Source: Bulleidia extructa W1219
Lineage (GTDB): Bacteria; Bacillota_I; Bacilli_A; Erysipelotrichales; Erysipelotrichaceae
DNA length: 64,000 bases
Direction of reading: 5' to 3'
NCBI RefSeq assembly: GCF_000177375.1
Contig: NZ_ADFR01000002.1
Coordinates: 186,001 to 250,000, forward strand
This document shows, one piece after another, positions 1-24,261 of this stretch (positions within the stretch are counted from its first letter, which is position 1; each line of letters starts with the position of its first letter). The notes beneath the pieces were generated by a model. The model did not search any database and had not been told where the DNA came from. It worked only from the letters and a program-made list of their open reading frames with translations. Position numbers and translations under genes: made by a program.

Positions 1-210
1 ATATTTCAGAATATTTAAAACGACATTTTCCAATTTAGTATAAGGCTGATTGTGAAAATAACCCTCTATATTTTTTAAAAGCCAATCCCGAACCTCTTCA
101 TGGGAATTTAATTTACTATGACAAACTATCTCATCGCTTGCAACTTGAAGATCCTCCCCTTTTGGTAAAATAACGGATAGAACATAGTTTATAAATACAG
201 CTTTTATCAT
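1..210 (-). CDS. Unrecognised protein, N-terminal 70 residues (partial)
   Basis: Only the first 70 residues lie in the window; the gene runs off the left edge. The protein begins MIKAVFINYVLSVILPKGED and has no clear signal peptide or transmembrane helix. The start is well supported by an AGGAGG ribosome-binding site at 218-223, seven bases from the ATG. The terminator at 243-268 separates it from the gene at 287-766, so it is probably transcribed from its own promoter. I do not recognise the family. Confidence 0.7.
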   Translation of the reverse strand, partial: MIKAVFINYVLSVILPKGEDLQVASDEIVCHSKLNSHEEVRDWLLKNIEGYFHNQPYTKLENVVLNILKY

Positions 211-242
211 TTCCAATCCTCCTATGTATGACAAATGGGGCG

Positions 243-268
243 ATAAAAAAGTTGGTACATACCAACTT
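243..268 (-). terminator. Rho-independent terminator after the 287-766 gene
   Basis: On the minus strand a perfect 9-bp stem (AAGTTGGTA / TACCAACTT) with a 2-base loop is followed by a T-rich run. It lies just downstream of the stop of the membrane protein gene at 287-766. Confidence 0.8.
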
Positions 269-286
269 CCTTATCAGTATGAATCA

Positions 287-766
287 TTAGGCTTTTTCAA
301 CAAAAGTCTCGTGATAATTGCCACCCAAAGCAATCACTTGGTTCGCGACATTGAAGATATCACTGGCAATCGCTCCTTCTTCATACACGAACTTACGTTC
401 CACACGATACGCTAAAGTTTCTTCCTCGGAAACAGTATAACCGGAACTCGCTAAAATATCCTTGAAGTCCTCTGCACTTTCTTGTGAATCATAGGCCACC
501 TGATGTACAATTCGTACCTCTTCACCAGACATAAATCTTTCCGCATAGCTATTTTCATTAGCTAATGTTTCTTCCAAAAAGTTAGCCGGTAAGAATGGAT
601 ACACTGTCTTTAATTCCAAAACCTCATCGCTTTCTTGCGGATTACCAACTTCAATTAGTTCTACTTCTTCCTCTTCCGCTTCACTCTTTTTGTCTAAAAC
701 CTTTTTAGCCACTACCACAGCACCAACTGCTGCCGCTGCCACAATTCCCCAAAGTTTAATACTCAT
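287..766 (-). CDS. Small single-pass membrane protein of unknown function
   Basis: 159 residues. Residues 5-21 (LWGIVAAAAVGAVVVA) form one hydrophobic, alanine/valine-rich membrane anchor. A lysine patch (KKVLDKK) follows, then a very acidic linker (SEAEEEEVE) and about 110 residues of soluble domain. The positive patch after the helix predicts an N-out, C-in orientation or an uncleaved signal anchor. A GAGGG ribosome-binding site precedes the ATG. It is monocistronic, with its own terminator at 243-268. I do not recognise the C-terminal domain and assign no function. Confidence 0.75.
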   Translation of the reverse strand: MSIKLWGIVAAAAVGAVVVAKKVLDKKSEAEEEEVELIEVGNPQESDEVLELKTVYPFLPANFLEETLANENSYAERFMSGEEVRIVHQVAYDSQESAEDFKDILASSGYTVSEEETLAYRVERKFVYEEGAIASDIFNVANQVIALGGNYHETFVEKA

Positions 767-1004
767 AATTTTGCCCTCTTTTTATTTATTTTAGCATATT
801 ATTTATTTTTTACACCTGTGAGCCTTTTTTCTAACTTCTATATCTAATCATCATCCTATCTATCTATACAAAAAATGATAACACATCGACCGACAAGCCC
901 TTTCCAAACAAATCAGCCTTATCTTAGTTGACTATAAATAAGAAGATCTTTTTTCATTCCAAACAATATCATTTTCTAACTAAAAAACATTTAGCCTTCT
1001 ATGA

Positions 1005-1028
1005 AAAAGCTTCCCCTTGGGAAGCCTT
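1005..1028 (-). terminator. Terminator of gpmA
   Basis: Minus-strand hairpin (AAGGCTTCCC / GGGAAGCTT) followed by TTTTC, just past the gpmA stop codon. Confidence 0.75.
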
Positions 1029-1031
1029 GAT

Positions 1032-1778
1032 TTATTTCTTAACAGAACCTTGGTTTGCAACAGCTGCCATCTTAGCTTCAATAGCCGCTTGATCTCCTAA
1101 GTATTCTTTCGAAACAAAATGACCATTATCATCAAACGTATATACAAGAGGCACACCGGTTGGAATATTAACACTGACAATTTCTTCATCACTTAGCCCT
1201 TCAAAATACTTCACTAAAGCCCGCAAACTATTTCCATGAGCCGCAATCAACACTCTCTTACCTTCTTTCATCTTAGGTAAGATTTCTTGTTCATAATAAG
1301 GAACAGCCCTTTCAATGGTTGTCTTTAGACTTTCTGATAATGGTAATTCATCCTTACTTTCATTACGATATGCGTCTTGATTCGCCGGATTACGATCATC
1401 ACTTGCTTCTAAAGCAGGTGGTTGCACATCAAATGAACGACGCCAAATTTTCACTTGATCTTCTCCATACTTCGCAGCCGTCTCTGATTTATTTAAACCT
1501 TGCAAAGCTCCATAATGACGTTCATTTAATTTCCACGTTTTCGTAACCGGTAACCATTCCCGATCCATTTCCGATAAAATATAATTCAAAGTATGAATGG
1601 CTCTTTTTAAATAAGAGGTATAACATAGATCAAAATCAAACCCCGCTTCTTTTAAAGCACGACCTCCAGCCTTAGCTTCTTCAACTCCTTTATCCGATAA
1701 TTCCACATCTGTCCAACCGGTAAATAAATTTAATTTGTTCCATTCGCTTTCACCATGACGAACTAATACTAATTTCAT
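1032..1778 (-). CDS. gpmA: 2,3-bisphosphoglycerate-dependent phosphoglycerate mutase
   Basis: Interconverts 3- and 2-phosphoglycerate in glycolysis in the cytosol. The histidine-phosphatase signature [12 protein letters not shown] places the phosphorylated His at residue 8, and the second catalytic His lies in [24 protein letters not shown] is typical of the cofactor-dependent enzyme. The length, 248 residues, matches the family. I chose the ATG at 1776-1778 because GGAGG lies seven bases upstream; the in-frame ATG at 1788-1790 sits inside that ribosome-binding site. It appears monocistronic, bounded by terminators at 1005-1028 and 1824-1848. Confidence 0.96.
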
Positions 1779-1823
1779 AACATCCTCCATCTATTAACAC
1801 ATTTACTTTATCATTTTTTAAAC

Positions 1824-1848
1824 AAAGAAAAAAGGTGCCGAAGCACCT
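1824..1848 (-). terminator. Terminator of the NCS2 permease gene
   Basis: Minus-strand hairpin AGGTGC-TTCG-GCACCT with a stable UUCG-type tetraloop, followed by TTTTTTC. It lies 25 bases after the permease stop. Confidence 0.9.
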
Positions 1849-1872
1849 AATTCAATCTCTCAATCAAAACCA

Positions 1873-3240
1873 TTAAACCAAAAAATATTTCAAAATAAAG
1901 ACAACACTTAAGACATACATCAATGGCGATAATTCATTCTTCTTACCGGTGCATAAATGTAAAATTGTATATGTAATAAAACCGAAAGCAATACCATCAG
2001 AAATACTATACGCAAACCCCATCATCGTAATGGTCACAAAAGCCGGAATCGCTTTGGTTAGATCTTGCCAATTAATGTTCGTTACTTGTTGCATCATTAA
2101 GAAGCCGACAAACATTAAAGCAGGGGCTGTCGCAAAAGATGGAATTGTTAAAAATAACGGGCTAAAGAATAAAGCCAATAAAAATAACACCCCAGTCGTA
2201 ACAGCTGTCAAACCAGTACGACCTCCTTCAGAAATACCCGAAGAAGATTCAACGAAAGTTGTAATAGTTGAAGTCCCTAAACACGCTCCAATCGTCGTAC
2301 CGACAGCATCAGCTAATAAAATACCCTTGATTTCAGGTAATTTGCCATGTTCATCCAGCATACCGGACTTTTCAGCACAACCAATGACCGTTCCAATCGT
2401 ATCGAAAATATCCACAAATAAAAACGCAAATAAGATAACAATAAAATCCCCTATATGCGATACCATAAAATTAAAATCAAATTGAAACATCGTTGATGCC
2501 ATACTTGAAGGCATTGAGAATACAGCACTCGGAATCACGGAATAGAAGCCGGCTTTTGGATTTGGCACATAGAATCCTATCAATTGCAAAACCATGCCCA
2601 ATCCCCAAGTAATCAAAATTCCCCACAGCATATACCCTTTGATACCCTTGATAAACATATAAGCAATCATCAAAGTGCCAAATAATGCCAACATCACTGC
2701 TACACCTTGTGTATGAATCGTTCCGGAAACAAGCGCTGCTTTTAAATTAAATAAACCAACCAAGGTAGGACTATCTACAATAATACCGGCATTTTGTAAA
2801 CCGATAAATGTAATGAAGAAACCAATCCCAACTCCAACAGCCGTCTTTAAAGAAGCAGGAATAGCATTAAAGATAGCTTCCCGTACATTCGTTACTGATA
2901 AAACAATAAATATAAGGCCTTCCACCAAGACAGCTGTTAAAGCCACTTGCCAACTAAAGCCCATTTGACCACAGACTGTGTATGCAAAATACGCATTCAA
3001 TCCTAAGCCGGCCGATAACGCAAAAGGCTTATTCGACAATAGAGCCATCGCAAAACAAGCTATTGCTGAAGCAACCGCCGTTGCCGTTAAAATACTGCCT
3101 TTATCCATTCCCGAGGCACTTAAAATAGTTGGGTTCAAAGCCAAAATATAAACCATGGTCATAAATGTGGTTAACCCAGCCACCAATTCAGTTCGAACGG
3201 ATGTACCGTTCTTTTTCAACTTAAAGAAATTTTCTAACAT
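1873..3240 (-). CDS. NCS2-family purine (guanine/hypoxanthine/adenine) permease
   Basis: 455 residues with 12 or more hydrophobic helices, a cytoplasmic-membrane nucleobase importer of the AzgA/PbuG-PbuO branch of NCS2. Diagnostic segments are GLGLNAYFAYTVCGQMG near residue 78, the DIFDTIGTVIG loop near 280, and the signature GTSTITTFVESSSGISEGGRTG near 320. Purine-type substrate is supported independently by the guanine-class riboswitch in its leader (3315-3386). The start ATG has an AAGGAGAG ribosome-binding site. The gene is monocistronic. The exact base transported cannot be decided from sequence. Confidence 0.93.
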   Translation of the reverse strand: MLENFFKLKKNGTSVRTELVAGLTTFMTMVYILALNPTILSASGMDKGSILTATAVASAIACFAMALLSNKPFALSAGLGLNAYFAYTVCGQMGFSWQVALTAVLVEGLIFIVLSVTNVREAIFNAIPASLKTAVGVGIGFFITFIGLQNAGIIVDSPTLVGLFNLKAALVSGTIHTQGVAVMLALFGTLMIAYMFIKGIKGYMLWGILITWGLGMVLQLIGFYVPNPKAGFYSVIPSAVFSMPSSMASTMFQFDFNFMVSHIGDFIVILFAFLFVDIFDTIGTVIGCAEKSGMLDEHGKLPEIKGILLADAVGTTIGACLGTSTITTFVESSSGISEGGRTGLTAVTTGVLFLLALFFSPLFLTIPSFATAPALMFVGFLMMQQVTNINWQDLTKAIPAFVTITMMGFAYSISDGIAFGFITYTILHLCTGKKNELSPLMYVLSVVFILKYFLV

Positions 3241-3270
3241 ATTCTCTCCTTTTTCTAATCACACATCGAA

Positions 3271-3301
3271 AAAAGAAAAACTCTGTAGATTTCTACAGAG
3301 T
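3271..3301 (-). terminator. Riboswitch expression-platform terminator
   Basis: Minus-strand hairpin CTCTGTAGA/TCTACAGAG followed by TTTTTCTTTTTT, between the aptamer and the permease ribosome-binding site. It is the natural off state for ligand-induced transcription termination. Confidence 0.88.
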
Positions 3302-3314
3302 GTCTAAAAAATCT

Positions 3315-3386
3315 AGACACCGTAGTCCCATAGTTACGGCCATGGGGTAGAGACTCTCTCGCCAATTCGAGAGGATATACGATATG
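3315..3386 (-). promoter_or_regulatory. Purine riboswitch aptamer, guanine class
   Basis: On the minus strand the leader carries the purine-riboswitch core in order: CGTATA at the start of P1/J1-2, a P2 stem (CCTCTCG/CGAGAG), GTCTCTACC at J2/3, a P3 stem around CCGTAA, and GGACTACG at J3/1. P1 can form between AUAUCG and CGGUGU with G-U pairs. The J3/1 sequence carries C where adenine riboswitches carry U (position 74 of the xpt numbering), which predicts guanine or hypoxanthine as ligand. A TATAAT -10 box at 3398-3403 lies just upstream. With the terminator at 3271-3301 it should shut off the permease when guanine is plentiful. Confidence 0.93.
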
Positions 3387-3455
3387 TGACTCTTGTATTA
3401 TAAAGGAAAAATAAGAAAATGGAACAACTTTTTCAAAAGACTATTTTTTATCATA

Positions 3456-3469
3456 TGAAAGCGCTTGCT
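3456..3469. promoter_or_regulatory. cre-like catabolite element
   Basis: TGAAAGCGCTTGCT fits the CcpA consensus TGWAARCGYTWNCW at every position. It lies about 70 bp upstream of the lipoprotein gene at 3540 and about 53 bp upstream of the riboswitch promoter -10 box, so either gene could be the target. Confidence 0.55.
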
Positions 3470-3539
3470 TTTTTGGATATACTTTCTAATATTGAATTGT
3501 AAGAGGTAATACTTTTGAAAATAGAAAGGAAAACGCAAT

Positions 3540-4112
3540 TTGGTATTCAAAATGAAACATCTAAAATCGATTCGAAATATTCTCTTCTTATTGGGCTTTG
3601 TATTACTTATAACAGGATGTGGTAAAAAAGAAATCACTTATAAGGGAGGCATGGGCTTTTCAGCCACTGATCTTCCATACAAAGAAGTCAAATTCCACAT
3701 TTATCGATCCAACACGGATAATCATAAATGGAAACGCATCCATACATTCAATATTTCACTACAAGAAATTAAAAAAGATGAGTACATTGATATCAACTTA
3801 AGTTCAAAAAATAAAGAAATAATCGCTCAAGTGACTAAAAATTCAGTTACCAAAGATGAAACATCAAAAACCATAGAATCTAAAGTCATAAACTCTACAA
3901 AATTTGATGTCCCCGGTTTTACTTCTAACTTAACTAGTTATGAACGTAAATCCATCATCCAAAGTGACCAAGAACAAATATTCTTACTATATCCCATCAG
4001 TCATAAATCCTCTGCTACTTATTTCTCTAAAATTTCACTCAGTGAACCTTATGATATAGAAAAACGTAATCTTGACAATATCTTAGTAACCGTGGAATTC
4101 ATGAAACCATAA
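3540..4112 (+). CDS. Putative lipoprotein of unknown function
   Basis: 190 residues from the TTG at 3540. A lipoprotein signal peptide ends in the lipobox LLITG-C near residue 29, so the mature protein should be lipid-anchored on the outer face of the membrane. The rest is hydrophilic and lysine-rich with no recognised domain. The AAAGGA ribosome-binding site at about 3525-3530 is correctly spaced for the TTG start; the ATG at 3552 is about 21 bases away and is less likely, though both give a valid signal peptide. A terminator follows at 4117-4144. A cre-like site lies upstream. Similar unrelated-looking lipoproteins occur at 25395, 28575 and 36543. Confidence 0.75.
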   Translation: MVFKMKHLKSIRNILFLLGFVLLITGCGKKEITYKGGMGFSATDLPYKEVKFHIYRSNTDNHKWKRIHTFNISLQEIKKDEYIDINLSSKNKEIIAQVTKNSVTKDETSKTIESKVINSTKFDVPGFTSNLTSYERKSIIQSDQEQIFLLYPISHKSSATYFSKISLSEPYDIEKRNLDNILVTVEFMKP

Positions 4113-4116
4113 TGTG

Positions 4117-4144
4117 AAAAAGCTCCCTTGAATAGGAGCTTTTT
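4117..4144 (+). terminator. Terminator of the 3540-4112 lipoprotein gene
   Basis: Hairpin AGCTCC / GGAGCT flanked by AAAA and TTTT. Confidence 0.8.
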
Positions 4145-4149
4145 AATGA

Positions 4150-4172
4150 CAAAAAAAGGGGTTCAACCCTCT
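4150..4172 (-). terminator. Terminator of the metal-transport operon
   Basis: Minus-strand hairpin GAGGGTT/AACCCC followed by seven T residues, directly after the mntR-like stop codon. Confidence 0.7.
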
Positions 4173-4823
4173 TTATTCACCTAAAATTTTAACGTAGATA
4201 TGATGAGTTGCTTTTACGGAAATTAAGATAGTTCTTCCTTCATAAAGAACCGATAATGATTCATCGAAAGAATCTTTCCCCACAATTTCCAACTCGTCAT
4301 GAAGCTTTAACCCAATTCGATCTAAATACGCTAAAAGTTGCTTTTCTTCATCATCCACTTTAATAATTCTAGCTTTTTGACCAACCTTTAAATCCGCCAA
4401 AAATAAACCCTTTTCCACAGGCTCATCGACATTTTCATAAATGATCGATCCATGCGGACAAGTCCTTGGATAATTTAAATACACATTCAAGTGTTTTTTC
4501 AATTCATCATTCGTCACATGTTCTAATAAGTCTGCCTGTTCATGCACATCTTGCCAATTGTAATGCAGCTTTTCTAACAAAAACGTTTCCCACAAACGAT
4601 GACAACTCAATATTCGTTTGCTTTCCTGCATACCGGTTTTTGTCAAAATAATTTCATTTCCCTTAAATGTGATAAAATCCTCTGATTGTAACTTTTTCAA
4701 CATTTCCGAAACTGAAGGCGGGGCAACATTCAAATGAATTGAAATCTTTTTATTCGTTACTTTTTCACCTGATTCATAAAGACGAAAGATGGTTTTTAAA
4801 TAGTCTTCTCGATTGTTAGTCAT
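4173..4823 (-). CDS. mntR: DtxR/MntR-family metal-dependent transcriptional repressor
   Basis: 216 residues. The N-terminal winged helix (residues 1-65, with VAPPSVSEMLKKL as recognition helix) is followed by the metal-binding dimerisation region (CHRLWETFLLEKL and VHEQADLLEHVTNDEL, supplying His, Glu and Asp ligands). A C-terminal FeoA/SH3-like domain starts near residue 140 (VGQKARIIKV). The protein should bind Mn(II) or Fe(II) and repress metal uptake. Its start overlaps the preceding permease gene by 8 bp, making it the last gene of the transporter operon it probably controls. The inverted repeat at 8429-8442 is the likely operator. Metal specificity (Mn versus Fe or Zn) is inferred. Confidence 0.9.
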   Translation of the reverse strand: MTNNREDYLKTIFRLYESGEKVTNKKISIHLNVAPPSVSEMLKKLQSEDFITFKGNEIILTKTGMQESKRILSCHRLWETFLLEKLHYNWQDVHEQADLLEHVTNDELKKHLNVYLNYPRTCPHGSIIYENVDEPVEKGLFLADLKVGQKARIIKVDDEEKQLLAYLDRIGLKLHDELEIVGKDSFDESLSVLYEGRTILISVKATHHIYVKILGE

Positions 4824-5901
4824 ATGAGTTCTCCACTAAAAGTGTAACACGCTTTTCTCCTTTCGGACTAAGTTCATACACACTTAATGCTTCATTTTTA
4901 ACAATCCAATTTAATTTCAAAAGACTTTGAATGGTTTGGCGTGTCCTCTTAGATGACCAATTCAAATGAGTTTTAATCGAATCAATACCAACTTCCTGTT
5001 GATTTCCCGGATGGTGATATAAGTGCATTAAAAATAAATCTTGATAGACCACTTTTCTTTGTTTCGCTCTTTGAATTTTTTTACTAAGCCATCCGTTTTT
5101 ATGAAAAAGAACCACCAGAACACCTTGTACAAGCCCAATAAAACTACACATACCAGCAATGGAAACGTTCCACATATTCGCAATCAGAAAACCTAGCACC
5201 GAACTGCTTATCGCAAATAACAAACTAGCTACGATGGTATATTTCAAATTCTTCGTCACAAGACAAGCGCAAGCCCCTGGAGCTACCAAGAAAGAAATCA
5301 CTAAAATAGCCCCTACACTATCAAAAGCAGTGACGGTTGTCAATGAAGTTAACGTCATTAATCCATAAAACAAATATCCTGTTCGAATTCCTTTTAACCG
5401 GGCATATTTCGGATCAAAGCTAGTGATTTTTAACGGCTGATAGAACCAAATCACAAAAGCCATATTGACGATAAATAATGCCAGCATTACCACAAATGAC
5501 TTTGGCAATCCGAACAAACGAATAAATGGTGCAAATAAAGGATTACCCATCAACACAATATCCACGTCTAAATGAGCATTCCGGAAAAGGCGACTAATCA
5601 AAATGACCGCCAGCGAAAAAAACATAGGGAAAATAATACCTAGGGCATCATCTTTCTTCACTCGATATTTATTCGCTATTGTCTCCACTACATACACCGT
5701 CAACAAACCAAACAGAGAAGCCCCTATAAATAACCACGGGGAGTTTAAATCCTGTACACCGATAAAGGCAATCACTATTCCCAATAAAACAGAATGAGAA
5801 AGAGCATCCGCTGTCATAGATAATTTTTGTAATACTAAAAATGGGCCTAAAACAGCACAAGCCAGTGAAGTCATAAGAATAACCAATAAAACTTCAATCA
5901 T
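4816..5901 (-). CDS. Metal ABC transporter permease with C-terminal winged-helix extension
   Basis: 361 residues. Residues 1-270 form the multi-helix membrane domain of the ABC-3 (ZnuB/MntB/TroD) family, with LQKLSMTADALSHSVLLG near residue 25. After the last helix, residues 285-361 are soluble and resemble a winged helix (HHPGNQQEVGIDSIKTHLNW, then LSPKGEKRV). That extension is known in some TroD/SitD-type permeases. Four-bp overlap with the upstream permease (5898-6764) and 8-bp overlap with mntR show tight co-translation. The substrate is probably Mn, by operon logic. Confidence 0.92.
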   Translation of the reverse strand: MIEVLLVILMTSLACAVLGPFLVLQKLSMTADALSHSVLLGIVIAFIGVQDLNSPWLFIGASLFGLLTVYVVETIANKYRVKKDDALGIIFPMFFSLAVILISRLFRNAHLDVDIVLMGNPLFAPFIRLFGLPKSFVVMLALFIVNMAFVIWFYQPLKITSFDPKYARLKGIRTGYLFYGLMTLTSLTTVTAFDSVGAILVISFLVAPGACACLVTKNLKYTIVASLLFAISSSVLGFLIANMWNVSIAGMCSFIGLVQGVLVVLFHKNGWLSKKIQRAKQRKVVYQDLFLMHLYHHPGNQQEVGIDSIKTHLNWSSKRTRQTIQSLLKLNWIVKNEALSVYELSPKGEKRVTLLVENSYD

Positions 5902-6764
5902 ACAAGCGAACTCCTTTTTCGAATAGCACTATTCTTTCCAAAGAACATTGAAAGAAATGTTAGTGTACCCATCACCAAAATGATCGTTGGTCCTGTCGAT
6001 AAACCATGATACAAAGAACTCAAGAAAGTTCCTAAAAAAGCACTAAAACCAGCCATAATAGCTGCAATGATTAACACCTGTTTTAAACGATGACTATGTT
6101 GATGAGCACAAACACATGGAATAATGAGAAAAGAAGATATTAAAATCGCACCCACGCTCTTAATACCAACTGCAATTAAACCGATGGTCATCATCAAAAG
6201 AATTCGATCCACCAATCGTGAAGAGACACCAATACTTTCTCCATAAGTAGAATCAAAAATACTTAAAACCAATTCTTTATAAAATAAAAATAAAATCAGT
6301 GAACAAATACCCGCTACCACAAAAATCAAAAGGACATCCTGCTTCATCATAAAAGCAGCCAAACCAAAAATATAGTTTTTCAAGCCGGCTTGAGAAGCAT
6401 TCACATAATTAGGATTCCCCTGAATATAACTCTTTAAAACAAGACCTAAGCCAAAGAAACCGCTCAACACAATCGCTAAAGCCGCATCTAATTTGATTTT
6501 ACTATAACGAACCAAAGCCTGTATCGTTTCATAAGCCAGTCCTGCGGATAAAGCAGCCCCAATTGTTAATAAAATAGGATTTCTTGATTGAAATACCATA
6601 AATATCAAAACAATACCCGGAAAAGTAGAATGACCCACTGCATCACCAACAAGACTTTGACCCTTATACACACTAAAGCAGCCTATCACAGCACTGACCA
6701 TAGCTAATATAGTCGTTCCCAATGCAACGACCAGAAAATCATACGATGTTAAAATCTCAATCAT
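5898..6764 (-). CDS. Metal ABC transporter permease
   Basis: 288 residues with eight or nine membrane helices, ABC-3 family (MntB/ZnuB/TroC-like). Typical segments are VYKGQSLVGDAVGHSTFPGIVL near residue 33 and GAILISSFLIIPCVCAHQHSHRLK near 207. It overlaps the ATPase gene by 4 bp on one side and the second permease by 4 bp on the other. Two different permeases imply a heterodimeric channel, as in TroCD. Confidence 0.93.
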   Translation of the reverse strand: MIEILTSYDFLVVALGTTILAMVSAVIGCFSVYKGQSLVGDAVGHSTFPGIVLIFMVFQSRNPILLTIGAALSAGLAYETIQALVRYSKIKLDAALAIVLSGFFGLGLVLKSYIQGNPNYVNASQAGLKNYIFGLAAFMMKQDVLLIFVVAGICSLILFLFYKELVLSIFDSTYGESIGVSSRLVDRILLMMTIGLIAVGIKSVGAILISSFLIIPCVCAHQHSHRLKQVLIIAAIMAGFSAFLGTFLSSLYHGLSTGPTIILVMGTLTFLSMFFGKNSAIRKRSSLV

Positions 6765-7474
6765 ACCGTTCCCTCTTGGAAAGTGGTATCCAGATTTTCT
6801 TGTGTCAAAACATCCTGTATAGAACCATAAGCAATGACCTTTCGATTAATGAGAACCACATGATCAAAATAATCCCTCAGTGTTTGCAAATCATGATGAA
6901 CACAAACAATTGTTTTCCCTTCTTTCTGAAGAGCTTTCATTTTATCCATAATGATTTTCTCACTGGTTTTATCCACTCCAGCCAATGGTTCATCCATTAA
7001 AATCAATTGTGCATTTTGACATAAAGCACGCGCAATAAACACCCGTTGCTTCTGACCACCGGATAATTCTGATATTTGACGATCTTTCAAGTCACTGATT
7101 TTCATTTCCTCTAAAGCATCCAGTGCTAATTTTTTATCTTCATTACCTGGACGATGAAACCAGCCTAATGAGGAATACCTCCCCATCAAAACAACATCAA
7201 ATACAGTAATCGGAAAATCCCAATTCACCGATGCCCGTTGTGGCACATAAGCTAAGCGATTTAACACATCCTTCAAAGGCAAGCCATAGAGTGTTATCGC
7301 ACCGGATAAAGGCTTTAAGAAACCTAAAATAGATTTCAATAAAGTAGATTTACCCGCTCCATTAGGCCCAACAATAGCGGTTAAACTTCCCTCTTCAATA
7401 TCGACATCAATATCCCATAAAACAGGTTGATACCCATAGGATGCCGTCAAATCTTCCACATGAATAACACTCAT
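6761..7474 (-). CDS. Metal ABC transporter ATP-binding protein
   Basis: 237 residues, one nucleotide-binding domain. Walker A GPNGAGKSTLL is near residue 36, signature LSGGQKQRV near 138, Walker B LILMDEPLAGVD near 157, and switch His in CVHHD. It energises the two downstream permeases. GAGGG precedes the ATG. It sits 14 bp after the substrate-binding protein gene and overlaps the next gene by 4 bp. Confidence 0.95.
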   Translation of the reverse strand: MSVIHVEDLTASYGYQPVLWDIDVDIEEGSLTAIVGPNGAGKSTLLKSILGFLKPLSGAITLYGLPLKDVLNRLAYVPQRASVNWDFPITVFDVVLMGRYSSLGWFHRPGNEDKKLALDALEEMKISDLKDRQISELSGGQKQRVFIARALCQNAQLILMDEPLAGVDKTSEKIIMDKMKALQKEGKTIVCVHHDLQTLRDYFDHVVLINRKVIAYGSIQDVLTQENLDTTFQEGTV

Positions 7475-7488
7475 ACACTATCCCTCTT

Positions 7489-8415
7489 TTACTTCAAATT
7501 CGATACCATTAAATCAACATTCATCTTCACCATGTCAATATAGGTATCTCCCTTTTGTCCTTTAGGTGCCAAAGAATCACTAAACAATTCTTGACCTTCA
7601 CCCTTAACAACCTTGACTTTCCAACCTTTTGCGGCACAAGATTCTTTTAATTTTTCCATACGAGCCGGATCAGTTGTCGATTCCGCAAAAATAGCTTTGA
7701 TCTTATGATCAACAATAAATTGAGCTGTCTTAGCCATATCTTTCGTACTTAATTCGGCATCCGTGCTAACCCCTTGTGGAGCTTTCACTTCAATTCCGTA
7801 TTGTCTTGAAAAATAGCTAAACGCATCGTGTGGAGTCACCAAAATACGTGACTGCTTAGGAATGGAATTGATTTGAGTTTGACAATAATTTTTCAAATCA
7901 TCTAGTTTCTTAAGGTAAGCTTGTAAGTTTTCTTCAATTTTATCCTTATGGTTTGGCAACTTCTCTTTCAAACTGCGAGCTGCTTCAACAGTAGCCTTCT
8001 TATATAGCTCTACATCAAACCAGAAGTGTGGATCGGTAATCTTAGAGCCATCTTCTTCCATTGTTAATAAAGATTTCTTATCAAAGTTCTTTGTAACAGC
8101 TTGTCCCTTAACAGATTCTAATAATTCAACCATCTTTCCTTCAAAATGAAGTCCATGATATAAAACCAAATCAGCATTCTTTAACTTTGAATGATCCTCT
8201 GGTTTTGCTTCATAGGTATGAGGATCTTCTCCAGCAGGAATGACCAATTGAACATCAACATAGTCCTTTGCTAATTGATTCACCATATCTTGTAAGAAAG
8301 AAGTGGTTACCGTCACCTTTAATTTCTTGTCTGTCGATTTTGTGGTATTGGTATTTGGCTTACCACAAGCCATCAGCATCAATACACTTAGTATTGAAAC
8401 AATCCATTTCTTCAT
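7489..8415 (-). CDS. Metal ABC transporter substrate-binding lipoprotein (Mn/Zn type)
   Basis: 308 residues of the ZnuA/PsaA/MntA cluster A-I family. The lipobox is LMAC near residue 17. Predicted metal ligands are His in GEDPHTYEAKPEDH, His in ITDPHFWFD, Glu in IFAESTTDP and Asp in GDTYIDMVKMN. This His-His-Glu-Asp set, and the lack of a long His-rich loop, favours Mn (or Fe) over a dedicated Zn protein. It is first in a five-gene operon with its ATPase, two permeases and a MntR-like regulator. The -35/-10 promoter and operator lie immediately upstream. Confidence 0.94.
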   Translation of the reverse strand: MKKWIVSILSVLMLMACGKPNTNTTKSTDKKLKVTVTTSFLQDMVNQLAKDYVDVQLVIPAGEDPHTYEAKPEDHSKLKNADLVLYHGLHFEGKMVELLESVKGQAVTKNFDKKSLLTMEEDGSKITDPHFWFDVELYKKATVEAARSLKEKLPNHKDKIEENLQAYLKKLDDLKNYCQTQINSIPKQSRILVTPHDAFSYFSRQYGIEVKAPQGVSTDAELSTKDMAKTAQFIVDHKIKAIFAESTTDPARMEKLKESCAAKGWKVKVVKGEGQELFSDSLAPKGQKGDTYIDMVKMNVDLMVSNLK

Positions 8416-8428
8416 GTTTTTCTCCTTA

Positions 8429-8442
8429 TTAGGTATACCTTA
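8429..8442. promoter_or_regulatory. Predicted MntR/DtxR operator
   Basis: TTAGGTATACCTTA is a near-perfect inverted repeat of the TTAGGn(n)nCCTAA type bound by DtxR/MntR-family repressors. It lies between the -10 box and the ribosome-binding site (AAGGAG) of the metal-transport operon, about where transcription starts. Occupancy by the metal-loaded regulator encoded at 4173-4823 would block the promoter. Confidence 0.75.
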
Positions 8443-8448
8443 TTAAAT

Positions 8449-8477
8449 AATCTACACCACCTAAAAACAAGAGTCAA
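8449..8477 (-). promoter_or_regulatory. Sigma-A promoter of the metal-transport operon
   Basis: Minus-strand -35 TTGACT at 8472-8477 and -10 TAGATT at 8449-8454 with a 17-bp spacer. The operator at 8429-8442 begins just downstream of the -10 box. Confidence 0.75.
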
Positions 8478-8489
8478 CACATACTATCT

Positions 8490-8731
8490 ATTTTTTCTTT
8501 TTATCTCCTAAGCCCCATCGAAACTGATAGACCATAACGACCGTAATATCATAAAAAAGCCTCTCATAAAATGGTGTTGAATCCACCATAAAAGAAAGGA
8601 CTTCTTCAGAAAAATTTCATTTTTAGTGAACGTTATAAATATCTTTTCCTTGGCAAGGAAAAATGCTCCTCATTTGAAATGGGTTTTTTCAAATCATGAT
8701 CAATAGTTTCCCACCAGATAGCTCTTGACAC
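8490..8731. other. Intergenic region, no gene seen
   Basis: AT-rich stretch between the metal-operon promoter and the pepV stop. It holds weak inverted repeats (ATGGTG/CACCAT near 8571-8590; TTTGAA/TTCAAA near 8675-8696) that may end pepV transcription. No open reading frame has a convincing ribosome-binding site. Confidence 0.4.
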
Positions 8732-10120
8732 TCAATCCTTTTCGCAAGCCAAGTCATAAAGAATATTCGCATAAACCGCACAAGCTCTTAACATCGTTTC
8801 GATTTCAAAGCCTTCATCCGCTTCATGCTCCCCTGCTACCCAAGAAGGATAAGGACGATTTGGGAAAACCGGTCCACAAGCCACAAAATTTTCAAACGTA
8901 CGAGCATAAGTACCTCCGCCAATACTCAAAGCAGGAGTGTATGTATCCCCACTCATTTCCCGATAATGTTTCATAACCGTCTTGACCAATTCACTATTCG
9001 GATCACTTAAAAGCCACTTGGAATCATCAAAAATTTCGGCTTCCAATCCCAATTGTTCTCTCACTACCTTAGCACTTTGTGCAAACAATTCTGAACCGGT
9101 GCATTCATTAGGATAACGATAATCGCAGAACATATCGATTTCTCCTTGATGAATAGTCACCTTACCTAAATTAAAGGTTAATGGCCCCATATAAGCCCCA
9201 TTAAAATCCACACCAAATCCTTCACCATAATGATCCGCTAAAATATGACTAGCCTTCAAAGAAAATTCATCTTGATAACAACTTCCGATGAATTGGAACA
9301 TTTTGACTGCCGCATTGACACCATGATATGGTTTTGAGGCATGGAAAGGCTTACCATCAATATGATAATGACTTCCCTTTTCATCTTCATAACAGCTTCC
9401 TGTTATGTGTTGCGATAATAGGAACTTTTCAAAATACTCTTTTTCTAAGGAACGATTGACAATCACATCTGCTTTTCCAATCACAACATTATACGCATTC
9501 CCAGCTTTCATCTCTTGAATACAAGTATTGACCTTACCATAAACACGGAAATCTAAAATGCCTTTTTCGGCATAAATACAAGGAAAATCAGCGTCCGGTA
9601 CGATTCCCATGATTGGATTTTTCTCATGTTCTTTATAATACAAAACACCCGCTGAAGTAGTTTCTTCATCTGTGCCAAAGATACATTGAATATTATGTTT
9701 CAATTTAAAACCATGATCTTTTAAAATGCGAAGAGCATAATATGCCGCAATAGCTGGCCCTTTATCATCCGCACTACCACGTCCCATAATAAAGCCATCT
9801 TTTATTTCACCTTTTAAAGGGTCAAAATGCCAATCCGCTAAATCCCCTAATGGAACCACATCTAAATGGCCTAAAACGCCAACCGATTCTTCCAAATCAC
9901 CATACTGAACAACCCCTGCATAGCCATCTACATTCTTCACTTTAAACCCATCACGCTTCCCAATTTCAAGCATCGTTTCCAAAGCTTTACGAATATTTGG
10001 TCCAAAAGGTTGACCAGGACCGGCGTTTGCATCATCACGAACCGATTCAATCGCCATTAAAGAACGAATATCTTCAATCATATCCTTCTCATAACGTCTT
10101 GCGTCTTCTAAAAATTTCAT
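8732..10120 (-). CDS. pepV: Mn2+-dependent dipeptidase, PepV/Sapep family (M20)
   Basis: 462 residues. A cytosolic M20 metallopeptidase that hydrolyses dipeptides. Metal-site motifs are GVLGHLDVVPLGD (His, Asp), GRGSADDKGPAIA (bridging Asp) and FGTDEETTSAG (general-base Glu and ligand Glu); IGGGTYAR and AGEHEADEG lie near the C-terminus. The start at 10120 is chosen for AGGAGG four bases upstream; the in-frame ATG at 10141 has no such site. It is monocistronic. Confidence 0.94.
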   Translation of the reverse strand: MKFLEDARRYEKDMIEDIRSLMAIESVRDDANAGPGQPFGPNIRKALETMLEIGKRDGFKVKNVDGYAGVVQYGDLEESVGVLGHLDVVPLGDLADWHFDPLKGEIKDGFIMGRGSADDKGPAIAAYYALRILKDHGFKLKHNIQCIFGTDEETTSAGVLYYKEHEKNPIMGIVPDADFPCIYAEKGILDFRVYGKVNTCIQEMKAGNAYNVVIGKADVIVNRSLEKEYFEKFLLSQHITGSCYEDEKGSHYHIDGKPFHASKPYHGVNAAVKMFQFIGSCYQDEFSLKASHILADHYGEGFGVDFNGAYMGPLTFNLGKVTIHQGEIDMFCDYRYPNECTGSELFAQSAKVVREQLGLEAEIFDDSKWLLSDPNSELVKTVMKHYREMSGDTYTPALSIGGGTYARTFENFVACGPVFPNRPYPSWVAGEHEADEGFEIETMLRACAVYANILYDLACEKD

Positions 10121-23500: not shown

Positions 23501-23531
23501 ATTTTACTGGGATTTTTTCACTAAATGCGGA
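23501..23531. repeat. Left att-like direct repeat
   Basis: 31 bp, ATTTTACTGGGATTTTTT then (C)ACTAAATGCGGA; differs at one base from 24157-24187. It lacks the rest of the tRNA, so it is the duplicated end (attL/attR type) of an integrated element. Confidence 0.75.
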
Positions 23532-23644
23532 CATCAAAGAACTATCATAGCGTTTTTTAATATTGAATAAACTGCTTAAATACTGCATTTTCATGTATTT
23601 CAAAAAATAGCACTTTTGAAAAATTCTGTCACCAAAAAAGCAGA

Positions 23645-23836
23645 TTATTTTCCACCTTTCCATTTTTTAATTGTGTCTTCCATGGCTTTTCTGATCACAT
23701 CAGATTGAGAAATTTCAAGTTCTTTGCAGGCTTTACGAAAAGATAACACAAAATCATTTTTATAAGTAGCCAAAACTCTCATCATATTTTCCTCTCTCCA
23801 TTTAGCATTGTATTCTCTTTGATTAAATGTTCCCAC
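23645..23836 (-). CDS. Ribbon-helix-helix-like small protein
   Basis: 63 residues from a GTG start with AGGAG eight bases upstream. VLATYKNDFVLSFRKACKEL and EISQSDVIRKAMEDTIKKWK have the strand-helix-turn-helix pattern of CopG/Arc-type DNA-binding proteins. Its start overlaps the stop of the 26-residue peptide gene (TAGTG), so the two are translationally coupled. It lies inside the att-flanked element at tRNA-Leu and may be its regulator. The family assignment is inferred from pattern. Confidence 0.65.
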   Translation of the reverse strand: MGTFNQREYNAKWREENMMRVLATYKNDFVLSFRKACKELEISQSDVIRKAMEDTIKKWKGGK

Positions 23837-23916
23837 TATTTATCTCCTTTCTTTTTGTTTTTAAAATAAATAAAGAAAATAATTGCTACCGCAATAATAC
23901 CTACACCTTTTTCCAT
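23836..23916 (-). CDS. 26-residue membrane micropeptide
   Basis: Begins MEKGVGIIAVAIIFFIYF and ends in a lysine-rich tail (KNKKKGDK), one transmembrane segment plus a basic end. It overlaps the next gene by one base. No clear Shine-Dalgarno sequence is seen before the ATG. The architecture is like type I toxins or small phage membrane peptides; function unknown. Confidence 0.5.
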   Translation of the reverse strand: MEKGVGIIAVAIIFFIYFKNKKKGDK

Positions 23917-23944
23917 ACTATGTTAAAATGAACTAGGAAAGGGA

Positions 23945-23960
23945 GAGGAATTACTTCCTC
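23945..23960. repeat. Perfect palindrome between micropeptide genes
   Basis: GAGGAA-TTAC-TTCCTC, overlapping the stop of the 31-residue gene. It may be a weak terminator or processing hairpin. Confidence 0.45.
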
Positions 23961-24046
23961 TTCTTCCAACTTGAGATTTCCTTAATTGCTAGAACTATCG
24001 CAAACAAGTAAGCTAGTGTTTCAAGGAAATCTTTTATATCGCTCAT
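23951..24046 (-). CDS. 31-residue membrane micropeptide
   Basis: Starts MSDIKDFLETLAYLFAIVLA, followed by IKEISSWKKRK: an amphipathic start, one hydrophobic helix and a basic tail. A strong AGGAGG ribosome-binding site seven bases before the ATG supports it as real although very short. It lies in the att-flanked element. It resembles holin-like or type I toxin peptides only in architecture. Confidence 0.6.
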   Translation of the reverse strand: MSDIKDFLETLAYLFAIVLAIKEISSWKKRK

Positions 24047-24140
24047 CTTTATACCTCCTGGAAAATACATTTTTGGTAGAGAAATGCCATTAAGTCCATC
24101 AAATATAAACAAAGAAAAATCCTGTCAAAATCCTGTCAAA

Positions 24141-24174
24141 AAATAAAAAAATCCCTATTTTACTGGGATTTTTT
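24141..24174 (-). terminator. Terminator of tRNA-Leu
   Basis: AAAAAATCCC / GGGATTTTTT hairpin downstream of the tRNA on the minus strand. One arm is part of the 31-bp direct repeat. Confidence 0.8.
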
Positions 24175-24187
24175 AACTAAATGCGGA
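24157..24187. repeat. Right att-like direct repeat overlapping tRNA-Leu
   Basis: 31 bp that includes the terminal bases of the tRNA-Leu acceptor stem. It matches 23501-23531 at 30 of 31 positions. Confidence 0.75.
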
Positions 24188-24261
24188 TAACAGGGGTCGA
24201 ACCTGCACTCCAAGGAACTAGATTCTAAGTCTAGCGCGTCTGCCAATTCCGCCATATCCGC
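24182..24261 (-). tRNA. tRNA-Leu (TAG anticodon)
   Basis: Acceptor stem GCGGATA/TATCCGC, anticodon stem CTAGA/TCTAG with loop CTTAGAA (anticodon TAG), a variable arm, and T-arm GCAGG-TTCGACC-CCTGT. Discriminator A; CCA is not encoded. It reads CUA leucine codons. Confidence 0.96.

What the first reader, a model, noticed from the sequence alone, without database searches (positions are those of the whole stretch)
23501..24187. Integrase-less 0.65-kb element at tRNA-Leu with 31-bp att-like repeats
The tRNA-Leu 3' end plus half its terminator is duplicated 650 bp downstream (30 of 31 bp identical). Only three tiny genes lie between. Short AAAATCCTGTC-type repeats occur near both borders, twice in tandem at the right, as for integrase arm-binding sites. 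It may be a deletion relic of an island, or a minimal satellite mobilised in trans.
Basis: partly seen in the sequence, partly recalled or inferred. Interest (0 to 1): 0.7.

Follow-up and report, generated by a model that had tools for sequence, protein, structure and literature searches.

The report
Prophage scar at a leucine tRNA
A 656-bp stretch beside a leucine tRNA gene is almost certainly what is left of a virus genome that once inserted there: its two attachment sites and the small gene group that such viruses carry at one end survive, while the integrase and everything else are gone; it is a largely ordinary relic, though the small gene group is undescribed and often found stranded at tRNA genes.

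Summary
A 31-bp direct repeat (30 identical) covers the last 6 nt of tRNA-Leu(TAG) and half its terminator, recurs 656 bp away, and far exceeds chance. Three tiny genes (31 aa, 26 aa, 63 aa) lie between. GACAGRATTTT repeats, tandem with an 11-bp period on the tRNA side and single on the other, sit where integrase arm sites belong. The 63-aa protein is a predicted ribbon-helix-helix (RHH) regulator with relatives in 29 of 316 Erysipelotrichales genomes. In prophages of this order the same cassette (peptide-hairpin-peptide-RHH) lies between the lysis genes and the prophage end. An intact prophage in a congener (G096) reads tRNA-core-tandem arms-int-...-lysis-cassette-arms-core. The window has the same ends in the same order, with everything between the left arms and the first peptide missing, including the cassette's usual promoter/operator. 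The congener also has an integrase remnant at the same tRNA-Leu. A second integrase-less att-flanked cassette (1.1 kb, tRNA-Trp, genome G040) has an empty site in a congener. Interest is modest; the cassette is the more interesting part.

The parts
24182..24261 (-). tRNA-Leu(TAG), the integration target; intact, regenerated by the element
   Evidence: ARAGORN
24157..24187 (-). attL core: 6 nt of the tRNA 3' end plus half of the terminator hairpin
   Evidence: 30 of 31 identical to attR
24116..24137 (-). left arm sites, GACAGGATTTT twice in tandem (11-bp period), 19 bp inside attL
   Evidence: same position as the arms between int stop and att in related prophages
24047..24115 (.). inferred deletion junction region; int, phage genes and the cassette's TTTACAT-palindrome-TATAAT promoter are absent
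   Evidence: DNA homology to prophage end L076 stops at the start of the first peptide
23951..24046 (-). peptide 1, 31 aa, MSDIKDFLETLAYLFAIVLAIKEISSWKKRK, hydrophobic with Lys/Arg tail
   Evidence: relative in prophage L076 (E 2.6e-5)
23944..23961 (-). hairpin AGAGGAA(GTAA)TTCCTCT around the peptide 1 stop codon, conserved in form but not sequence across the family
23836..23916 (-). peptide 2, 26 aa, MEKGVGIIAVAIIFFIYFKNKKKGDK
23645..23836 (-). 63-aa predicted ribbon-helix-helix regulator (GTG start)
   Evidence: (PHROG Arc-like repressor 5.7e-5)
23620..23630 (-). right arm site GACAGAATTTT, 14 bp after the RHH stop codon
   Evidence: G096 prophage also has arms between RHH and attR
23501..23531 (-). 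attR core: displaced copy of the tRNA 3' end and half terminator

Best explanation
A prophage of the Erysipelotrichales type once integrated at the 3' end of tRNA-Leu(TAG) through a tyrosine integrase. Its attP restored the tRNA end and the terminator at attL and displaced the native copy to attR. A later internal deletion then removed everything between the int-side arm sites and the 5' side of the terminal cassette (int, the phage genes, and the cassette's promoter/operator). What remains is attL, arms, peptide 1, hairpin, peptide 2, RHH, arm and attR. Shown: the att repeats, the arm repeats, the cassette family, its position at prophage ends, and an intact congener prophage with the same ends. 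Inferred: that this locus came from such a prophage, that one deletion did it, and that the cassette is now weakly expressed or silent.
For: The intact G096 prophage at tRNA-Thr has core ATGCCGCTTGGCAGA at both ends, arms GCTAACGTTTT x2 just after the int stop, and at the other end endolysin, holin, peptide, RHH and arms between RHH and attR. Most related integrase genes inspected end next to 11-bp-period tandem repeats, usually followed by a terminator and a tRNA 3' end. The RHH cassette sits between lysis genes and the prophage end in L079, L087, L091 and IMG/VR prophages L073-L077. Window DNA aligns to prophage end L076 over 377 columns, from RHH to the start of peptide 1, and stops there. 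The promoter/operator found in most prophage copies is absent here. G096 has a C-terminal integrase remnant directly at the same tRNA-Leu(TAG). Eleven-bp tandems are about 3.4 times denser within 900 bp of the cassettes than farther away.
Against: No phage gene or integrase fragment remains in the 656 bp, so the parent prophage is not seen directly. All three small ORFs are intact, which a neutral relic need not keep. The right end has one arm instead of two. No empty site for this locus in the same species could be found; the closest genome has a rearranged neighbourhood.
Confidence: 0.78

Rival explanations
1. A minimal satellite: an att-flanked cassette that excises and integrates with the integrase of a helper prophage and is moved in trans.
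For: Both att cores and arms on both sides look intact. A second integrase-less att-flanked cassette exists at tRNA-Trp in G040 (1105 bp, 18-bp exact repeats) with an empty site in congener G045. Solo cassettes lie beside several different tRNAs.
Against: Single copy in its genome and no near-identical copy in 60 relatives, phages or plasmids. The only non-Xer-like tyrosine integrase of the genome lacks GACAGRATTTT repeats beside it. The promoter is missing. Other solo cassettes are damaged (in-frame stops in L051 and L061). The G040 element carries an extra phage-type gene, as a relic would.
Confidence: 0.1
2. Decay in which the cassette is kept by selection: the relic arose by deletion, but the cassette (perhaps a toxin-antitoxin-like or exclusion module) is retained because it helps the host or because its loss is costly. 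This is a variant of the best explanation, not exclusive of it.
For: All three ORFs, start sites and the hairpin are intact in the window. The cassette is what remains at several tRNA genes without int.
Against: Promoter and operator are missing here; several solo copies are pseudogenes; no family match to known toxins or defence proteins.
Confidence: 0.25
3. Remnant of an integrative conjugative or mobilisable element (a CIME) instead of a prophage.
For: Same anatomy: attL and attR kept, integrase and transfer genes gone (definition in PMC5704250).
Against: The cassette was found at prophage ends beside lysis genes; no conjugation gene was noted beside any copy inspected.
Confidence: 0.08
4. 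Not an element: a chance or terminator-only duplication.
For: Most of the 31-bp repeat is terminator sequence.
Against: Includes the tRNA end, score 28 against a shuffle maximum of 17, arm repeats on both sides, and a prophage-end cassette between the copies.
Confidence: 0.02

Closest known systems
Deletion-derived prophage remnants ('grounded' prophages, PMC6379469)
   Same: Prophage that lost its recombinase and cannot leave; decays by deletion at its integration site.
   Different: Here reduction is extreme: 656 bp, with both att sites and arms still readable and only the terminal cassette left.
CIME, cis-mobilizable element (PMC5704250)
   Same: attL and attR retained, integration genes lost; could in principle be moved by an element with a matching integrase.
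   Different: CIMEs derive from ICEs or IMEs; the cassette here is from prophages, and no transfer origin or tandem helper was seen.
tRNA-targeting genomic islands mapped by Islander (PMC4383910)
   Same: Regenerated tRNA and displaced fragment mark the ends.
   Different: Islander requires an integrase gene inside; this element has none and would be missed.
Arc/CopG-type ribbon-helix-helix repressors
   Same: PHROG Arc-like repressor match; predicted helices; weak structural matches to CopG and Arc; palindromic sites in the promoters of the family.
   Different: No curated Pfam or NCBIfam cut-off met; operon partner peptides are tiny and of unknown function; the window copy has no recognisable operator.

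Membership tests
Deletion-derived prophage remnant | Direct att repeats at a known integration target | tested here: met
   30 of 31 bp, tRNA-Leu 3' end
Deletion-derived prophage remnant | Gene content derived from prophages of related hosts | tested here: met
   Cassette lies between lysis genes and prophage end in L079, L087, L091, L073-L077
Deletion-derived prophage remnant | Loss of integrase and structural genes | tested here: met
   None within 23501-24187
Deletion-derived prophage remnant | Identified parent prophage at the same site | tested here: inconclusive
   G096 has only an integrase C-terminal remnant at the same tRNA; parent not found
CIME | attL and attR retained, integration genes lost | tested here: met
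CIME | Derived from an ICE or IME | tested here: not met
   Cassette relatives lie in prophages; no conjugation gene noted beside them
CIME | Can be excised or mobilised by a matching integrase | not testable with these tools
   needs an excision assay
Phage satellite (PICI-like) | Own integrase, replication or packaging-interference genes | tested here: not met
   Only two peptides and an RHH protein
Type II toxin-antitoxin with RHH antitoxin | RHH regulator in an operon with a partner gene, with its own operator | tested here: inconclusive
   Family has palindromic sites in the promoter; window copy lacks it
Type II toxin-antitoxin with RHH antitoxin | Toxic partner neutralised by the RHH protein | not testable with these tools
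   needs expression tests

The most novel reading that the evidence does not exclude
The att-cassette-att units (656 bp here, 1105 bp at tRNA-Trp in G040) are true minimal satellites: they carry only recombination sites and an RHH-peptide cassette, and use the integrases of passing prophages to move between tRNA genes.
Probability: 0.1. Interest if true: 0.75.

Novelty: new member of a known kind. Interest (0 to 1): 0.33.

Why it matters
It shows how far a prophage can shrink while its attachment sites stay readable, and that such scars are missed by island finders that require an integrase. It also points to an undescribed prophage-end cassette (promoter with palindrome, tiny peptide, hairpin around the stop codon, second tiny peptide, RHH regulator) that recurs across Erysipelotrichales and is often found stranded beside tRNA genes. 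Whether it is a toxin-antitoxin-like or exclusion module is directly testable.

Tried and rejected
Phage and plasmid collections, DNA and protein: the DNA matches listed all cover the tRNA-Leu part of the query, and there was none for the RHH protein. Scan of viral contigs for the tandem arm motif: 14 contigs; the four inspected (L204, L205, L206, L210) carry it inside a coding gene of related viruses, taken as chance; the other ten were not inspected. Tandem GACAGAATTTT in G148/G154 lies inside a coding gene, rejected; in G147 it lies downstream of tRNA-His, non-coding, consistent with arms, but that contig ends before any integrase. Local copy in G000:C14 (terminator match near tRNA-Thr) has no cassette. 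Frame-2 reading across the left arms as an integrase C-terminus: no convincing match. Family searches: peptide 1, peptide 2 and family homologues in Pfam, peptide 1 and homologues in NCBIfam and PHROGs, peptide 1 and two homologues in PADLOC (peptide 2 was run in Pfam only): nothing above cut-off. RNAalifold on the hairpins was misaligned and not used; single-sequence shuffles were used instead.

Full report
Observation. The repeat is real. On the minus strand, tRNA-Leu(TAG) (24261-24182) is followed by its terminator, and the 31 bp TCCGCATTTAGTTAAAAAATCCCAGTAAAAT (24187-24157) recur with one mismatch at 23531-23501. In 300 dinucleotide shuffles of the surrounding 2 kb the best repeat scored at most 17, against 28 observed, and a 27-bp core pattern has no chance matches in the window. 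Only 6 nt are tRNA; the rest is terminator. GACAGGATTTT stands twice in tandem at 24137-24116 and GACAGAATTTT at 23630-23620. Between them lie three ORFs of 31, 26 and 63 aa.

The genes. The 63-aa protein is a predicted ribbon-helix-helix regulator: PHROG Arc-like repressor at 5.7e-5, a confident model with three helices (mean pLDDT 93.6), and weak structural matches to CopG, VapB and Arc (none significant). Relatives occur in 29 of 316 Erysipelotrichales genomes at E <= 0.001. In most relatives the gene is preceded by a tiny hydrophobic peptide with a Lys/Arg tail, a hairpin around or just after that peptide's stop codon (15 of 15 examined, 5-9 perfect pairs, different sequences), a second tiny membrane-type peptide, and, upstream of all, a TTTACAT-palindrome-TATAAT promoter. 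The window keeps both peptides, the hairpin and the regulator, but no such promoter.

Where the cassette lives. In several loci it sits between the lysis genes and the prophage end: L079 (G096), L087, L091 and the IMG/VR prophages L073-L077. In others it stands alone beside tRNA genes. Of 22 larger loci compared, 7 have a tRNA within 700 bp, and in all 7 the tRNA's 3' end faces the cassette, as expected for integration at tRNA ends. Some solo copies carry in-frame stops (L051, L061).

The template. The most informative comparison is an intact prophage in G096, the closest relative found (its homologue of the neighbouring tcdA-like protein is 79% identical). It reads: tRNA-Thr 3' end with core ATGCCGCTTGGCAGA, two GCTAACGTTTT arms, the stop of int a few bases further in, about 30 kb of phage genes, endolysin, holin, peptide, RHH, two more arms between RHH and attR, and the second core. 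Most related integrase genes inspected likewise end next to 11-bp-period tandem repeats, usually followed by a terminator and a tRNA 3' end. The window has the same ends in the same order and lacks only what lies between the left arms and peptide 1. DNA similarity to the prophage end L076 runs from RHH to the start of peptide 1 and stops there, which together with the missing promoter puts the deletion junction at about 24047-24115 (inferred).

The site. In G096 the same tRNA-Leu(TAG) is followed directly by a 110-aa integrase C-terminal remnant that ends at the insertion of an element with a serine recombinase, so the site has been used by tyrosine integrases in this group. The window arrangement is not conserved there: the tcdA-like gene lies elsewhere, beside tRNA-Leu(CAA). 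No same-species empty site could be sought with the collections at hand.

A second case. In G040 the cassette plus one phage-type gene lies between 18-bp exact repeats at tRNA-Trp, 1105 bp apart. Congener G045 has the two flanks joined, with the tRNA intact and the 1.1 kb absent. Integrase-less att-flanked cassettes therefore occur more than once.

Mechanism. Best supported is a prophage reduced by internal deletion, leaving attL, arms, terminal cassette, arm and attR. The steps from prophage to relic are inferred from the congener. A satellite that borrows a helper's integrase remains possible, since the sites look intact, but the unit is single-copy, no near-identical copy was found elsewhere, and the one other non-Xer-like integrase of the genome has no GACAGRATTTT repeats beside it.

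Comparison with the known. It resembles decayed 'grounded' prophages (PMC6379469) and has the anatomy of a CIME (PMC5704250), but it is not filed as a CIME because its cassette is from prophages, not from ICEs or IMEs. Island finders that demand an integrase (PMC4383910) would miss it. The organism appears to be a Bulleidia-like member of Erysipelotrichales (order supported by the record titles of relatives; genus inferred).

Noticed in passing
window 23645-24046 and loci L040-L059, L072-L077: A conserved prophage-end operon: TTTACAT-palindrome-TATAAT promoter, tiny Lys/Arg-tailed peptide, hairpin at its stop codon (15 of 15 loci examined, sequence varies), second tiny peptide, RHH regulator. 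No curated Pfam or NCBIfam cut-off is met by the members tested.
   Followed up: partly
L083 (G040:C120:2000-20000), repeats at 8973 and 10078 on the + strand: Second integrase-less att-flanked cassette, 1105 bp at tRNA-Trp, with an empty site in congener G045.
   Followed up: yes
L153 (G096:C1:296000-315900), 5735-6198: tRNA-Leu(TAG) followed directly by an integrase C-terminal remnant that ends where an element with a serine recombinase is inserted.
   Followed up: partly
L194 (G147:C20), 9459-9716: Four GACAGAATTTT-type repeats in two tandem pairs about 120 bp downstream of tRNA-His, with a partly duplicated terminator; the contig ends before any integrase.
   Followed up: partly
L078 (G091) and L182 (G091): A solo RHH cassette at tRNA-Gly carries the same type of arm repeats (AAAAGTTGACC) as an integrase elsewhere in the same genome, which also lies at a tRNA-like end.
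   Followed up: partly
L158 (G000:C8:121000-139000), 68-8767: The window's own genome has a prophage-like region with a 393-aa tyrosine integrase next to a CobW-type gene, without GACAGRATTTT repeats.
   Followed up: partly
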